DNA from: Candidatus Magnetomicrobium cryptolimnococcus
Lineage (GTDB): Bacteria; Nitrospirota; Thermodesulfovibrionia; Thermodesulfovibrionales; Magnetobacteriaceae
NCBI GenBank assembly: GCA_018606805.1
Contig: JAGYWI010000002.1
Location: 248,001-312,000, forward strand
Length of the DNA: 64,000 nt
Reading direction: 5' to 3'
The notes beneath the pieces were generated by a model. It ran no database searches, was not told the DNA's origin, and worked only from the letters and a program-made list of their open reading frames with translations. The translations under genes and the position numbers were made by a program. Below, in pieces: positions 3,274 through 29,311 of the stretch (position 1 is the first letter of the stretch; each line of letters begins with the position of its first letter).

Positions 3274-3993
3274 ATGATGGTAAATGCAAAATACGAAAGA
3301 GTACTCATTAAGTTAAGTGGTGAGGCCCTTATGGGTGAGCAGGGCTATGGTATATCTGCCGCGATGTTGCACTTTGTGGCCTCAGAAATTAAATTAGTAG
3401 TGGAGCTTGGCGTACAGGTGGCCATAGTAAATGGCGGTGGTAACATATTTAGAGGGGTTAAATCAACAGTTGAAGGGCTTGATAGGGCTACGGCTGATTA
3501 CATGGGGATGCTTGCTACTGTAATAAATGCCTTAGCCTTACAAAATGCGCTGGAACAAAAAGACGTGCCAACTAGGGTGCAATCAGCAATAGAGATGCGA
3601 GAACTAGCAGAGCCATATATAAGAAGAAAGGCTATAAGGCATCTTGAAAAAAACCGTGTGGTTATATTTGCAGCTGGCACAGGCAATCCTTATTTTACAA
3701 CAGATACGGCAGCATCGCTTAGAGCTATGGAAATTGACGCTAACGTTATAATTAAGGCTACAAAGGTTGATGGCATATATTCAGAAGATCCAATAAAAAA
3801 TCCCTATGCTATTAAGTTTGAGCAAATATCTTATCTTGATGTTATAAAGAAGGGCCTTTCTGTGATGGACTCTACCTCTATTACCTTATGTATGGATAAC
3901 AAACTTCCAATTATGATATTTAATCTGAAAAAACCCGGTAATTTAAAAAAGGCTATATTAGGAGAGAGGATCGGTTCTATTATCACAGATTAA
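3274..3993 (+). CDS. pyrH: Uridylate kinase (UMP kinase)
   Basis: This 239-residue amino-acid-kinase-fold protein converts UMP to UDP. Visible motifs are [11 protein letters not shown] at the N-terminus, [10 protein letters not shown], the UMP-site region [16 protein letters not shown], and the nucleotide-site region [13 protein letters not shown]. It starts 29 bases after tsf and belongs to the conserved operon. Two ATGs lie side by side at the start (3274 and 3277) and the ribosome-binding site is weak, so the first residue is uncertain by one. Confidence 0.96.
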
Positions 3994-12061: not shown

Positions 12062-13792
12062 CTAACCTAAATATCCCAGTTGTTTTAAATGTTCCTCAAC
12101 AGCGTTTTTGTCTATTTCGTTGAAATCCTCGCCTTCAACGTATTCAATAATCCCGTTTTGTTGATTTGTAAACCTTGCTGGTGTTGAGTTTGTATATTCA
12201 TGGGTAATCGCCTCCGTAAGGATGCGGCCATCTATGTCTTGCGTTATGGGGTCTTGCGTTACGGGGTCTTGCGGTATGGGTTCATTTAATAAATATAGTG
12301 CTGTTGGCGTTATATCCTCTATCTTAGGGTCATTTATGGGTCCATTTGGTATTATGTTTGGACCTTTTATTATACAGATGCCCTTTGGAAAGCTTGTGTG
12401 GTGGCCTGTTAATCTGTCTTTTGTGTTTAATGTGCGAAAGATTTCAGGATATAGACAATCCTTTCTTATAGAGTATCGTGGGTTTTTAAAAAATATAGCT
12501 AAATCCGGTGCTTCATCCACATACGGGCCACTATATAGCTCATGTTTTTCAAGCACTTTATCAATGAGCTGTTTACCGCTTATATCCTTTTGGCTATAAA
12601 GTGCGCTTTTTAATTCCTCAACTACACGTTTATATCCATTACCAGTGGTTACTATACCAAGAGGCTCTCTGCCTTTGAGATTTATATTTATAGCATAGGA
12701 CGTTGCATAGGCCTTAGTGTTTTGCCAGTCTATAAGCTCCGAGTTTGGTTTTACTTCCTTAAATAAAAACGGTAGGGTTTTGATTTTTATGCTTTTAGGT
12801 AATTTATCAGCAATAAAGTCAGAGCCAAGTTTTTCAAATACCCGGCTAATTGTAACTTCTTTTTTCTTTATTGTAAATTGCAAGCCCTTTTTTAATTTTA
12901 AAAACCCATTATCCATAAGCCACTTGTTTGCATAAAAAATATGATGTAAAGGTCCAAATCCGTGGTCAGAGACAAGGAAAAAGGTTGTATTGCCGTCATC
13001 TAATGCCTTAAAAATCCTACCAAGTGCGTTATCAACCGATTTATAGCCATCAAATACGGCATTTTTGTACTTTTTGGCAAGTGTCGGTTCATATGACGGA
13101 TGCCCGTGGTCCATAAAACACCACAAATGGTGCTGTAAGGCATCTATTGGCAGCATAAACATACTAAAATCATACCGATTTTTACTATGCAGATAAATAA
13201 CAATATCAGTGAGTTTTTCTATAATTAAATTGGAGGTGTTTATTGTTGTATCCAAAAAAGCCTCAAGACTACCTTCAATACGTGAGGTGTGCATTTCCAT
13301 AAATTGCCTTCTTTGGCGTAAAACCGAGCCTAAGTCAATCTCCTTAACTAACTCTGCAAAGAGCCCTTCTGGATATGTTTTAAGCTTATCTGGCTCAATT
13401 AACCGAACCGGGGACACCATAACGCCATTGACCTTAACCGGCGGATATGTAAGAGGCATAGCCGTAACCATCACGGTTTTATTTCTTTCACTAAGGATAT
13501 TCCATATAAGCTTAGTCTTTATATCGCGAGACGTTAACACAGCCCCTTCATCGTAAGAGGTATGTGAGTTAGCTCTAAAATCAAAAAGCCCAAGTTTCCC
13601 CGGATTTTTACCACTTGCACAAACAGGCCAAGCCGGTATCGTATGCGGCGGATAGGTTGACATCATACGTCCCCATACACCGCCGCTCATTATTTTAGAG
13701 AAGTTTGGCAACTCCCCCTTTTCAAGCATTGGCAGTATAATGTCAAAAGTAGCGCCATCTATGGCAATTATTATAATTTTACCTAAATTCAT
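12062..13792 (-). CDS. Alkaline-phosphatase-superfamily phosphodiesterase, paralog 2
   Basis: A 576-residue relative of the gene at 8832-10508, same architecture: IIAIDGATFDIILPMLEKGELP, then PPHTIPAWPVCASGKNPGKLG, SDHGFGPLHH and GHHTSFPKGICI. The tail EEHLKQLGYLG again matches paralog 1. A short repeat (DPVTQDPITQD) near residue 520 comes from a local 15-bp DNA duplication. It is the first gene of the minus-strand operon, behind a 65-bp divergent promoter region. Codons for residues about 50-95 are duplicated next to cas6 (16235-16370). Confidence 0.82.
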   Translation of the reverse strand: MNLGKIIIIAIDGATFDIILPMLEKGELPNFSKIMSGGVWGRMMSTYPPHTIPAWPVCASGKNPGKLGLFDFRANSHTSYDEGAVLTSRDIKTKLIWNILSERNKTVMVTAMPLTYPPVKVNGVMVSPVRLIEPDKLKTYPEGLFAELVKEIDLGSVLRQRRQFMEMHTSRIEGSLEAFLDTTINTSNLIIEKLTDIVIYLHSKNRYDFSMFMLPIDALQHHLWCFMDHGHPSYEPTLAKKYKNAVFDGYKSVDNALGRIFKALDDGNTTFFLVSDHGFGPLHHIFYANKWLMDNGFLKLKKGLQFTIKKKEVTISRVFEKLGSDFIADKLPKSIKIKTLPFLFKEVKPNSELIDWQNTKAYATSYAININLKGREPLGIVTTGNGYKRVVEELKSALYSQKDISGKQLIDKVLEKHELYSGPYVDEAPDLAIFFKNPRYSIRKDCLYPEIFRTLNTKDRLTGHHTSFPKGICIIKGPNIIPNGPINDPKIEDITPTALYLLNEPIPQDPVTQDPITQDIDGRILTEAITHEYTNSTPARFTNQQNGIIEYVEGEDFNEIDKNAVEEHLKQLGYLG

Positions 13793-16150: not shown

Positions 16151-16234
16151 TTTATACCTTAGCACCTTATGAAAAGGAGAGCTGGGTTGGGGAGTGCGCC
16201 TATGCATGCCATTAAGTTAAGGCATTTTTAGTTT

Positions 16235-16370
16235 AAGCTTAGTCTTTATATAGCGAGACGTTAACACAGCCCCTTCATCGTAAGAGACATGTGAGTTAGC
16301 TCTAAAATCAAAAAGCCCAAGTTTCCCCGGATTTTTACCACTTGCACAAACAGGCCAAGCCGGTATCGTA
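16235..16370 (-). pseudogene. 136-bp duplicated fragment of the phosphodiesterase gene
   Basis: These 136 bases match 13508-13643, inside the paralog 2 gene, with no gaps and three mismatches by eye. The fragment has no start or stop of its own and is in the same orientation as the source. It is preceded by the sequence CCATTAAGTTAAGG, found also beside other repeats. The rest of the 366-bp gap (16151-16516) shows no gene. Confidence 0.85.
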
Positions 16371-16516: not shown

Positions 16517-17428
16517 ATCAAAGAGGCTGATTTTGCTACTATTTACGATCTTATTTCTGGACTGAATATTGTAAGAATAAGATTTGACCTTGAGGTGACA
16601 GGGCGGCTGTACTTTGGCAATGACGAAAAAAAGGGGGACAGGTGGCGTGGTGCCCTTGGCAGGAGATTAATAGCCCTTTCGTGCGCTTATGGGTTAAGCG
16701 AGCCGCAGTGCAGATTATGTGATGTATCTAAGGATTGTTTTTTTTATGGCTATTTTTTTGTGAACAAACCCCACCCCTACGTTATACGGCCGGTTTTAGA
16801 CAAAAAAGAGGTTTATTTAAAGGGTGAGGCATTTTATCTTGATTTTATATTAATAGGTGAGGCAGCACAGCAGATAGAAAAATTTGTTTATGTTATTACA
16901 GATTTAAGTGTTACCAGTATAGACGGTGGCAGAGGAATGTTTGATATTAAAAACATTACTGCGCTTAATGTTAATGATATGGGTGCATGGCAATTAGGTG
17001 AATATAAGACGTTGGTTATAGAGCTTGAAACGCCTATAAAACTAAAAGATGATGCCAATGGGTTATATTTTTCGGAGTTTACATTTTATATTTTTTTTAA
17101 GCATCTAATAAAAAGATTGCTAAATCTTACTAATCTATATGGCGGTTTTGTATCTGTTAATAAAGATGCAATAGAGAAAGAAAAGAAAGCCTTGTTAGAA
17201 ATTGCAAACCAAATTGAGATGAAATCTGTAACTACATGGAAGGATTACGAAAGATATTCGTCAAGACAGAAAAAACATCAAAAGATTGGAGGCCATCAGG
17301 GCACTCTTTATTTAAAAGGAGACTTAGTAAGGTTATATCCATTTTTAAAATTAGGCGAGCTAGTCGGTGTGGGTCAAAATACTACAAGCGGTTTTGGTAG
17401 ATATAAAATTTCAGGTAGTCCTGAATAG
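16517..17428 (+). CDS. cas6: CRISPR pre-crRNA endoribonuclease Cas6, no canonical start
   Basis: Cas6 cuts precursor CRISPR RNA within the repeats. The protein shows RFDLEV, DRWRGALGRRL, a cysteine group CRLCDVSKDC, and the C-terminal glycine-rich motif GVGQNTTSGFGRY. The first ordinary start in frame is GTG 16595, but that drops the first conserved strand (IVRIRFDLEV). The frame is open back to 16469 without ATG, GTG or TTG. An ATC at 16517 sits exactly 6 nt after GGGGAG, so the native ATG may have mutated. The last codons (GGTAGTCCTGAATAG) match the end sequence of local IS1-like elements. Full conserved length is about 303 residues. Confidence 0.8.
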   Translation: MKEADFATIYDLISGLNIVRIRFDLEVTGRLYFGNDEKKGDRWRGALGRRLIALSCAYGLSEPQCRLCDVSKDCFFYGYFFVNKPHPYVIRPVLDKKEVYLKGEAFYLDFILIGEAAQQIEKFVYVITDLSVTSIDGGRGMFDIKNITALNVNDMGAWQLGEYKTLVIELETPIKLKDDANGLYFSEFTFYIFFKHLIKRLLNLTNLYGGFVSVNKDAIEKEKKALLEIANQIEMKSVTTWKDYERYSSRQKKHQKIGGHQGTLYLKGDLVRLYPFLKLGELVGVGQNTTSGFGRYKISGSPE

Positions 17429-17451
17429 ATAGTGTTAGATAACAAATTTGC

Positions 17452-17560
17452 CATTGCAAGGAGCGTAAGCGACGAAGGGTGTGTCGGCGCACCTCCCTTA
17501 ATCCCGCCTTTTATAGAGATTGCAGAGGTGTGCCTACACACCTTCGCTACGCTTGCAATG
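17452..17560. mobile_element. Miniature element between cas6 and RT-cas1
   Basis: It is bounded by CATTGCAAG...GCGACGAAGG (from 17452) and CTTCGCTACGCTTGCAATG (17542-17560), imperfect inverted repeats. A GTGTGTCGGCGCACC-type palindrome lies inside. The same end sequence recurs near 27930-28020. It is followed by a TGGGGCTGAACTATTA tail also present at about 20470 and 54615. A long open frame through it adds 46 spurious residues to RT-Cas1 if the first ATG is used. Confidence 0.65.
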
Positions 17561-17616
17561 ACAGAGTTGGGGCTGAACTATTACTAATTTTTAAGCTTTC
17601 TCATAGGGAGGAAGTA

Positions 17617-18912
17617 ATGGGGCTTTTTGAGGATATATGCTCTTTTAGAAATCTATGTGATGCCTTTGATAAGGTTGAAGAAAATGCAGGGGCTCCGGGA
17701 ATTGATAATATAACTATTGAAGAGTTCTCGGTTAGTCTTAATAGCAGACTTACATCATTAAGGAACTCTCTCCTTGACAAAACTTACCGCTCTTTACCGC
17801 TGCGTAAAATAGGTATAAAAAAATCCGATGGAACGCTTAGAAAACTCCTTATTCCCACAGTAAGAGACAGAGTAGTGCAAACCGCTGCATGTTTTGTGCT
17901 TACTCCACTTTTGGATAAAGAGTTTATGGAACAGGGCTCTGTATTAAGAAAAGAAGATGAGCGGATAGTTATAACAAAGGGTGAGCAGGTAATTAAAGAA
18001 ATTCCAGCTATAAAAATAGACCAGATATTACTTTTTGGGAGCATACAGGTAACCACTCAGGCAATGAAGTATTGCCTTGAGCAAGATATTCCTATAATAA
18101 TACTTTCAAGTACTGGAAAATACTATGGAGCTGTGGAGTCATTCAATTATGTTAACCCAGTACTCCATGCCAAACAGTTTGAGCTTTCAGGCAGCGAAGG
18201 TTTTTCGTTAACCGTTGGTAAAGCCATCGTAAGAGCCAAATTGCTTAATTCCAAAATACTTATGCAAAAATATGATAGAAATAGAAATGAACCTATACTT
18301 GGTACAACTATAAACACTATTAATTCAGTACTAAATAAACTATCTAGCGTGGAAACCATAGCTGAGCTTATGGGTATGGAGGGGGCAGGTTCTGCAGCTT
18401 ATTTTTCTGTCTTAAGGGCTTTAGTAGGCAGTGAGTGGGGTTTTAACGCGAGAAAAAAACAACCGCCTACTGATCCGGTAAATAGTATGCTAAGCTACGG
18501 ATATACCCTGCTCTTTTATAATTTTTACGCATTAGTGCGGTCTCACGGACTGCATCCTTATGCAGGTTTTTTACACGGTATAAGACACGGACATCCCGCG
18601 TTGGTTTCCGATCTTGTCGAGGAATTTAGGGCTCCTGTTGTTGATGCTGTGGTGCTTAATATTATTTCAAGAAACGCTCTAAGTCTTGATGATTTTGATA
18701 TATCAGACAGTGATGGCTTTCCTTGTCTTTTAAAGAGCAATGCAAGGAAGGTTTTTATAAAGGCATTTGAAAGTAAAATGAACAGTCTGATTTTACATAA
18801 AACATCTGGAATTCGCACAGACTACAGGCGATGTATGGATTTACAGGTTCAAATGCTTAAAAGATTAATCGAAGGAACGTTACAGGAATATAAACCATTT
18901 ACGATTAAATAA
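17617..18912 (+). CDS. cas1: RT-Cas1 fusion with deleted RT catalytic core
   Basis: Chosen start is ATG 17617, behind GGGAGGAAGTA. Residues 1-104 are the N-terminus of a group II-intron-like reverse transcriptase: GAPGIDNITIEEF (RT0) and LPLRKIGIKKSDGTLRKLLI plus PTVRDRVVQTA (RT1). The usual continuation (CSFGxRxGRS, the Asp of RT3, YADD of RT5, thumb) is absent. Instead DKEFME runs directly into QGSVLRKEDERIVI, the start of Cas1. The Cas1 part (about 105-431) is full length, with GMEGAGSAAYF (catalytic Glu), GFLHGIRHGHPALVSDLVEEFR (His and Asp/Glu). It should integrate spacers but cannot reverse-transcribe. cas2 follows after two bases. Confidence 0.9.
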   Translation: MGLFEDICSFRNLCDAFDKVEENAGAPGIDNITIEEFSVSLNSRLTSLRNSLLDKTYRSLPLRKIGIKKSDGTLRKLLIPTVRDRVVQTAACFVLTPLLDKEFMEQGSVLRKEDERIVITKGEQVIKEIPAIKIDQILLFGSIQVTTQAMKYCLEQDIPIIILSSTGKYYGAVESFNYVNPVLHAKQFELSGSEGFSLTVGKAIVRAKLLNSKILMQKYDRNRNEPILGTTINTINSVLNKLSSVETIAELMGMEGAGSAAYFSVLRALVGSEWGFNARKKQPPTDPVNSMLSYGYTLLFYNFYALVRSHGLHPYAGFLHGIRHGHPALVSDLVEEFRAPVVDAVVLNIISRNALSLDDFDISDSDGFPCLLKSNARKVFIKAFESKMNSLILHKTSGIRTDYRRCMDLQVQMLKRLIEGTLQEYKPFTIK

Positions 18913-18914
18913 AA

Positions 18915-19190
18915 ATGACATATATAATATCTTACGACATATCGGATGACAACATTAGACTTGGAGTTGGAAAACTTTTGGAAGGTTTTGGGTTGAGGGT
19001 CCAAAAAAGTGTTTTCGAATGTAGGATATCAGACACATACTTTGCTGAGATAAGAAAAACAATTGCAGGTATGATAGATAAAGAAACAGACAACGTAAGA
19101 TACTACAGACTTTGCCGTAAATGTGAGACAGAAGCTGAATTTTATGGAGAGGCTGTTGTTGAGGATGATTGTGGTTTCTTTATAGTTTAG
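18915..19190 (+). CDS. cas2: CRISPR-associated Cas2, first copy
   Basis: A 91-residue protein starting TYIISYDISDDNIR, the Cas2 beta strand with the conserved aspartate, then FGLRVQKSVFEC. Cas2 dimers bridge two Cas1 dimers in the spacer integration complex. It begins two bases after the RT-Cas1 stop, so translation is coupled. A downstream paralog (19313-19588) shares about half its residues. The C-terminus (VVEDDCGFFIV) is complete. Confidence 0.93.
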   Translation: MTYIISYDISDDNIRLGVGKLLEGFGLRVQKSVFECRISDTYFAEIRKTIAGMIDKETDNVRYYRLCRKCETEAEFYGEAVVEDDCGFFIV

Positions 19191-19193
19191 TAA

Positions 19194-19292
19194 TATAGCG
19201 AATTTTGATTTAATGGGTAATAAAAACTAAGGGCTTGCCCCTAGTGGTAGTCCTGAATGGGTAGTGTCGTAATCAAATTGAAATGTGCTATA
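19194..19292. mobile_element. Miniature element between the two cas2 genes
   Basis: Ends TATAGCGAATTTTGATTTAA (left) and AATCAAATTGAAATGTGCTA (right) are imperfect inverted repeats of the TATAGCACATTTCGATTT family, also found nested at about 19845-19993 and 29067-29218. The interior has AAGGGCTTGCCCCTA and GGTAGTCCTGAATGGGTAGTG, the latter like the sequence at the end of cas6. It is about 99 bp long and leaves the cas2 copy 2 ribosome-binding site intact. Confidence 0.65.
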
Positions 19293-19312: not shown

Positions 19313-19588
19313 ATGTTGACAGTCATAACTTACGATATAACAGATGATAGGTGCAGAGAAAAATTATCAAATGAACTTGAAAATTTTGGACTGCGGGTGC
19401 AAAGGAGCGTTTTTGAGTGTTTTTTGACAGAAAGCCTCCTTATAGAGGTAAAAGAAAGGGTAATGTCCATAATAGATGTAGAGCAAGATAGTGTTAGATT
19501 TTATACTCTTTGTAAAACAGATGAAGAATATATTAAATGTGATGGCAATTGTGTAATACACCGGAATGAAGATTATTTTATGGTTTAG
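19313..19588 (+). CDS. cas2: CRISPR-associated Cas2, second copy
   Basis: A 91-residue protein with LTVITYDITDDRCRE and FGLRVQRSVFECF, clearly Cas2 but well diverged from copy 1, so not a recent duplicate. The catalytic-type aspartates in YDITDD are kept and the C-terminus is complete. A GGGGGTGG Shine-Dalgarno precedes the ATG by seven bases. A Cas2 heterodimer, or two alternative adaptation complexes, is possible. No CRISPR array follows it. Confidence 0.92.
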   Translation: MLTVITYDITDDRCREKLSNELENFGLRVQRSVFECFLTESLLIEVKERVMSIIDVEQDSVRFYTLCKTDEEYIKCDGNCVIHRNEDYFMV

Positions 19589-29044: not shown

Positions 29045-29311
29045 CAATGTCATTAACTTAAGGGTTTATAGCACATTTCGATTTAATAGATAACAAACTT
29101 AAGGGCGAACACGCGAAAGGTTCGCCCATACAAAAACACGTGTACCGTAGTGGCAGACCTTTCGAGTGTCTGCCCTATGTTTTAGTGTTCTTATCAAATC
29201 AAAATGTGCTATATTATGACTCAAGGGGATTTTTAAATGCCTATCATTGCAAGCTGAAAACGAGTAATCTCTCAATGGTTAGAGGATGAATCCGTTAAGT
29301 TAATGACATTG
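29045..29311. mobile_element. 267-bp nested miniature element with 10-bp target duplication
   Basis: Terminal inverted repeats CAATGTCATTAACTTAAGGG (29045-29064) and its near complement (29292-29311) are flanked by direct repeats ACTGTATAAT (29035-29044 and 29312-29321). Nested at about 29067-29218 is a copy of the TATAGCACATTTCGATTT family, whose core has GGGCGAAC and GTCTGCCC hairpins. No coding content. Confidence 0.85.

What the first reader, a model, noticed from the sequence alone, without database searches (positions are those of the whole stretch)
17617..18912. RT-Cas1 fusion that has lost the whole reverse-transcriptase core
Seen: residues 1-104 match RT motifs 0-1 and then join in frame, at DKEFME/QGSVLRKE, to a complete Cas1. 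RT motifs 3-7, including the YADD box, are absent. Known: RT-Cas1 proteins in type III systems acquire spacers from RNA through an active RT, and are usually about 600 residues or more. Inferred: either decay by an internal deletion at a short similarity (both sides can read ME/TE-QGS), or a protein keeping the RT N-terminus as a structural docking module for Cas2 or Cas6. I do not know of a described clade with this architecture.
Basis: partly seen in the sequence, partly recalled or inferred. Interest (0 to 1): 0.85.

Follow-up and report, generated by a model that had tools for sequence, protein, structure and literature searches.

The report
RT-Cas1 gutted by internal deletion
A bacterial CRISPR gene that normally copies RNA into DNA and pastes it into the immune memory has lost its whole copying engine through one clean in-frame deletion, leaving an intact pasting enzyme with a short stub: a natural counterpart of a laboratory mutant, sitting in a CRISPR module that looks orphaned and partly decayed.

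Summary
Window 17617-18912 (+) encodes 431 aa: residues 1-103 are the N-terminal extension/RT0 and RT1 part of a group II intron-like reverse transcriptase (RT), and 104-431 are a complete Cas1. RT motifs 2-7, including the active site, are absent. Intact RT-Cas1 proteins of the same clade (689-692 aa, FADD box present) align end to end with it, about 62% identical in the stub and 57-59% in Cas1. Against them the window gene lacks one continuous block of 254-261 residues, cut in frame with only about 2-3 nt of possible microhomology, so assembly collapse is unlikely. No other in-frame case turned up in the genomes and loci searched; one relative (Candidatus Desantisbacteria) lost the RT core independently, out of frame. 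No comparable core lies elsewhere in the host genome. The product must be RT-dead. Cas1 and both Cas2 genes look intact, so DNA-only integration is possible, as for laboratory RTΔ-Cas1. But cas6 has no ordinary start codon, dispersed repeats lie in the operon, and no cognate array or effector was found, so an orphaned, decaying module is at least as likely. A docking role for the stub is not excluded but has no positive support.

The parts
17617..17925 (+). RT stub: residues 1-103, N-terminal extension/RT0 and RT1 of a group II intron-like RT
   Evidence: TIGR04416 E 4.7e-26; PDB 6ar1 residues 1-103, E 4.4e-16; 57-64% identity to clade RT-Cas1
17923..17928 (+). Deletion join (codons F103/M104); 254-261 residues present in intact relatives are missing here
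   Evidence: Protein and DNA comparison with L038, L039, L076
17926..18912 (+). Complete Cas1 integrase domain, residues 104-431, plus stop codon
   Evidence: PF01867 E 6.7e-87; 74 of 77 residues invariant in relatives kept; E255, H320 and E335 in the conserved columns
18915..19190 (+). cas2 copy a
   Evidence: PF09827 E 1.2e-20; 45-49% identical to the first cas2 of relatives
19313..19588 (+). cas2 copy b
   Evidence: PF09827 E 2.5e-21; 45-51% identical to the second cas2 of relatives
16595..17428 (+). cas6; homologous sequence continues in frame upstream of the GTG but no ATG/GTG/TTG lies there
   Evidence: PF10040 E 5.1e-12; 44-46% identical to relatives; frame read
17429..17570 (+). Dispersed repeat (MITE/REP-like) lying between cas6 and the RT-stub gene
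   Evidence: 49 matches, nearly all partial, in the own genome; imperfect inverted repeat 17443-17460/17552-17569
19262..19292 (.). Small dispersed repeat between the two cas2 genes
   Evidence: Related copy at 29183-29213; motif 7 times in the window against 0.46 expected
16234..16370 (.). 137-nt duplicate (134/137 identical) of part of the phosphatase-like gene at 13507-13643, upstream of cas6

Best explanation
The gene descends from an ordinary fused RT-Cas1 of a clade with tandem cas2 genes. One illegitimate, in-frame deletion removed everything from just after RT1 to the first strand of Cas1 (RT2-RT7, the catalytic aspartates, the RT part that in a solved relative reaches into the Cas1 active site, and the linker). 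Shown: the stub, the complete Cas1, the clean gap against intact relatives, and no comparable RT core elsewhere in the genome. Follows from known biology: the product cannot reverse-transcribe or add DNA tails to RNA, so RNA-derived spacers are out. Inferred: if expressed, Cas1 with the two Cas2 proteins could still integrate DNA, like the laboratory RT-delta-Cas1. But the module around it has no cognate array found, no neighbouring effector, a cas6 without an ordinary start and dispersed repeats inside the operon, so it is probably orphaned and eroding. My split on present state: mostly or wholly inactive relic about 0.55; working DNA-only integrase about 0.35; something else 0.1. The confidence below is for the origin by deletion and the RT-dead, Cas1-intact reading.
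For: Stub and Cas1 identities. Intact clade members with the FADD box. Clean single gap and 2-3 nt at the join. A second, independent RT-core loss in L075 with other breakpoints and out of frame. RT core in the own genome only as two distant RTs at about 30% identity that look like DGR RTs. Cas1 invariants kept. Literature: RT-delta-Cas1 acquires DNA spacers, and integration rates rise without the RT domain (PMC11014452); an RT active-site mutant loses 20-33% of DNA ligation but over 80% of RNA ligation, and an RT helix enters the Cas1 active site (PMC8102632). Decay signs: no cognate array, cas6 start, repeats in the operon, effectors elsewhere not close to those of relatives.
Against: The stub shows no relaxation on the window branch (6.9% of tree length for the stub, 7.6% for Cas1; 20 of 21 invariant stub residues kept), which fits a recent deletion but also a kept function. 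The reading frame survived and cas1, cas2a, cas2b carry no visible lesion. No reads could be mapped.
Confidence: 0.82

Rival explanations
1. Refunctionalised protein: the RT fingers stub is kept as a docking or regulatory module (for Cas2, Cas6 or Cas1 gating) in a DNA-only adaptation complex.
For: The stub evolves no faster than Cas1 on the window branch; predicted confidently folded with a flexible hinge at 100-105; cas1 and both cas2 intact.
Against: No second genome or clade has the same join; cas6 start lost and no cognate array; the prediction is taught by intact relatives, so it does not show that the stub folds alone.
Confidence: 0.12
2. Assembly or binning artefact: the true gene has an intact RT and the join is a misassembly or a minority variant.
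For: Only one genome carries the join; contigs of two relatives also end or repeat near the RT N-terminal region (L077 contig end; L075 141-nt repeated end).
Against: The flanks share only 2-3 nt at the join, far below any assembly k-mer; the contig is 337 kb; the join is in frame and no orphan RT-core piece exists in the assembly.
Confidence: 0.05
3. The stub is not RT-derived.
For: None found.
Against: Gapless alignment to GsI-IIC RT residues 1-103, TIGR04416 E 4.7e-26, 57-64% identity to the RT N-terminus of clade RT-Cas1.
Confidence: 0.005

Closest known systems
Fused RT-Cas1 of the group II intron-like CRISPR RT lineage (intact clade members L038/G054, L039=L078, L076)
   Same: Same clade, same N-terminus, same Cas1, tandem cas2 genes, separate cas6 (L038, L039)
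   Different: Window protein lacks RT2-RT7; L038 and L039 sit beside III-D-like effectors and 35-nt-repeat arrays, the window gene does not
Laboratory Marinomonas RT-delta-Cas1 (PMC11014452)
   Same: RT domain removed, Cas1 kept; the laboratory mutant takes spacers from DNA
   Different: Natural, keeps the RT0/RT1 stub, no fused Cas6, function untested
Candidatus Desantisbacteria JACQWU010000276.1 (L075)
   Same: RT core lost, RT N-terminus and Cas1 kept, two cas2 genes
   Different: Other breakpoints, out of frame (two overlapping ORFs), CRISPR array still adjacent
RT-free Cas1 of type III systems
   Same: DNA integrase domain only
   Different: These carry no RT stub; the window Cas1 is closest to RT-fused Cas1

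Membership tests
RT-Cas1 fusion (CRISPR-associated, group II intron-like RT) | RT-derived sequence fused in frame N-terminal to Cas1 | tested here: met
RT-Cas1 fusion (CRISPR-associated, group II intron-like RT) | Complete RT domain with motifs 1-7 and the FADD/YADD box | tested here: not met
   Motifs 2-7 absent; no comparable core elsewhere in the genome
RT-Cas1 fusion (CRISPR-associated, group II intron-like RT) | Descent from the RT-Cas1 clade | tested here: met
   Identities and tree among fused RT-Cas1; tandem cas2 as in clade members
Cas1 integrase | Complete fold with the E-H-E/D active-site residues | tested here: met
   PF01867 nearly full length; E255, H320, E335 conserved; Foldseek to Cas1 structures
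Active type III adaptation module | Cognate CRISPR array | tested here: not met
   None in the window and none with the relatives' repeat in the 98.5% complete genome; only the I-B-type repeat found. Arrays with an unrelated repeat were not exhaustively sought
Active type III adaptation module | Adjacent or closely matching type III effector | tested here: not met
   III-A, III-B and III-D effector loci lie elsewhere; the III-D one is only 22-28% identical over its longer matches to that of relatives
Active type III adaptation module | Spacer acquisition | not testable with these tools
   Needs an experiment

The most novel reading that the evidence does not exclude
A standing lineage that shed its RT core yet keeps the RT fingers stub as a structural or regulatory part of a DNA-only Cas1-Cas2a-Cas2b integrase, showing that RNA-based acquisition can be lost by a single deletion while adaptation goes on.
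Probability: 0.12. Interest if true: 0.65.

Novelty: new variant of a known kind. Interest (0 to 1): 0.4.

Why it matters
It is a natural version of the RTΔ-Cas1 construct used in laboratories, and with the Desantisbacteria case it shows that the RT core has been lost at least twice in one small RT-Cas1 clade while Cas1 stayed open. If the protein works, it would show in nature that RNA acquisition is a detachable add-on; if it is a relic, it shows how RT-Cas1 modules decay. The 2017 RT-Cas1 survey discarded short or disrupted sequences (PMC5513706), so such cases would have been filtered out there.

Tried and rejected
Same-join homologues: none in 60 relatives and 296 phylum genomes or 80 GTDB loci; L103, first suspected from its short span, proved to be separate RT and Cas1 genes. 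A first scan of genome contigs with the single protein found nothing because its patterns were too specific. Viral contigs: no relative. RT core in trans: only distant, DGR-like RTs. Microhomology 'ME/TE-QGS': rejected from intact relatives. dN/dS: not attempted, about 40% of residues differ. A literature search for truncated RT-Cas1 gave no described natural case in the held library, but the library is partial and Silas 2016 is not in it.

Full report
What is there. Window 17617-18912 (+) is an open reading frame of 431 residues with a good ribosome-binding site. Pfam finds only Cas1 (PF01867, E 6.7e-87, profile 4-282 of 283). NCBIfam adds group_II_RT_mat over residues 11-106 (E 2.7e-25; 4.7e-26 for the stub alone), ending at profile position 97 of 353. 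Residues 1-103 align without a gap to residues 1-103 of the GsI-IIC group II intron RT (6ar1, E 4.4e-16). The stub is thus the N-terminal extension/RT0 and RT1. Everything from RT2 on, with the catalytic aspartates, is gone.

How it arose. Two genomes of the same order, G054 (L038) and G050 (L039), carry intact RT-Cas1 proteins of 692 and 689 residues with FADD boxes. The window protein aligns with them from end to end, 62% identical in the stub and 57-59% in Cas1. The GTDB scan added L076 (Nitrospirae Kmv42, also intact) and others. Against these the window gene lacks one block of 254-261 residues, between RT residue F103 (LD[KR]EF) and the first Cas1 strand (LLEQGS). At DNA level the two ancestral sides share only about 2-3 nt at the join. 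With so little shared sequence an assembler has nothing to collapse on, and the contig is 337 kb long. No comparable RT core lies elsewhere in the genome; the two weak hits (29-30% identity) are RTs next to asparagine-rich, template-like repeats, probably diversity-generating retroelements.

Is it a lineage? In 60 relatives and 296 genomes across the phylum and in 80 GTDB loci checked ORF by ORF with stub and core profiles built here, no other protein has the stub joined directly to Cas1. One relative, Candidatus Desantisbacteria L075, has lost nearly the same part independently: its RT reads on to about residue 127 and is joined out of frame to the RT-Cas1 linker, giving two overlapping ORFs. 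Some other fused RT-Cas1 genes in the set are broken in Cas1 itself (L092, L093, L129, L130), so decay of such genes is not rare, although single-base errors in draft genomes may explain some.

Is the stub under constraint? Over sites invariant in the other proteins, the window keeps 20 of 21 in the stub and 74 of 77 in Cas1, like intact proteins. On a fixed tree its terminal branch takes 6.9% of the tree length for the stub and 7.6% for Cas1. There is no sign of relaxation. This fits a recent deletion or a retained role, and cannot tell them apart. A structure prediction from 28 sequences gives mean pLDDT 90, with the stub and Cas1 both confident and a low-confidence hinge at 100-105; since intact relatives taught the model, it does not show that the stub folds alone. 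Foldseek matches Cas1 structures, and the Cas6-RT-Cas1-Cas2 complex among them.

The surroundings. Upstream is cas6 (44-46% to relatives), downstream two cas2 genes matching the first and second cas2 of relatives. Tandem cas2 genes are general in this RT-Cas1 clade and mostly absent from other Cas1 loci in the set. In L038 and L039 the module lies beside III-D-like effectors and arrays with 35-nt repeats. In the window there is no array, and the relatives' repeat is absent from the genome; the arrays found carry one repeat, beside a I-B system with its own cas1. The genome has III-B, III-A and III-D effector loci with no array in the 20-kb stretches read and no adaptation genes among the genes identified, and the III-D one is not a close match to that of relatives (22-28% over its longer matches). 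The conserved start of Cas6 lies upstream of any ATG/GTG/TTG in its frame. A dispersed repeat with 49 matches in the genome lies between cas6 and the RT-stub gene, another between the two cas2 genes, and a 137-nt duplicate of part of another gene lies upstream of cas6. This is the look of an orphaned, eroding module, though cas1, cas2a and cas2b themselves are whole.

What it would do. In Marinomonas, removing the RT domain leaves a Cas1 that takes spacers from DNA, loses the link with transcription, and integrates faster (PMC11014452). In Thiomicrospira, an RT active-site mutant loses 20-33% of DNA ligation but more than 80% of RNA ligation, and an RT helix enters the Cas1 active site (PMC8102632). 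By analogy the window protein is RT-dead, freed from that helix, and able at most to integrate DNA. Whether it does so is untested. I put a relic at about 0.55 and a working DNA-only integrase at about 0.35.

Known or new. I found no described natural case in the held papers; the main 2017 survey discarded short or disrupted sequences, and at least one key paper is not held. It is best filed as a new variant of RT-Cas1: it meets descent and architecture but fails the defining complete RT.

Noticed in passing
L155 (G000:C72 near 106467) and L156 (G000:C67 near 2539): Two RT genes next to N/D-rich lectin-like repeats (SWYWSSTSYAVNTDNAWNVNMDNGNVNNDNK) with a matching variable copy nearby in L155: probable diversity-generating retroelements, the RT carrying an extra C-terminal stretch.
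   Followed up: partly
L077/L072 (DRKX01000160.1, G303:C160), contig end: The contig of this relative, whose RT core is intact, ends exactly at the codon where the window deletion joins (F of EFEEC), and its RT N-terminus is not found elsewhere in that assembly. Possibly chance, possibly strain variation at this point.
   Followed up: partly
L075:801-941 and 3750-3890: The first 138 nt of the RT gene (with 3 nt before it) occur twice, identical, the second copy at the contig end after a Phd/PIN toxin-antitoxin pair: an assembly repeat or a second context of the RT gene.
   Followed up: partly
window 18915-19190 and 19313-19588; L075-L090, L092-L094, L097, L106, L113, L124, L129, L130: Tandem, diverged cas2 genes are nearly universal in this RT-Cas1 clade, suggesting a Cas2 heterodimer.
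   Followed up: partly
G000 C21, C25, C51 (L041, L040, L043): Three type III effector loci (III-A, III-B, III-D) without arrays or recognised adaptation genes nearby, beside one I-B system.
   Followed up: partly
L092 (Methylovulum psychrotolerans Sph1): RT-Cas1 split by about 1 kb of inserted sequence inside Cas1, with the RT also in two frames.
   Followed up: no
window 13507-13643 and 16234-16370: 137-nt near-identical duplicate flanking a 2.6-kb stretch with a glycosyltransferase gene and two unknown ORFs.
   Followed up: no
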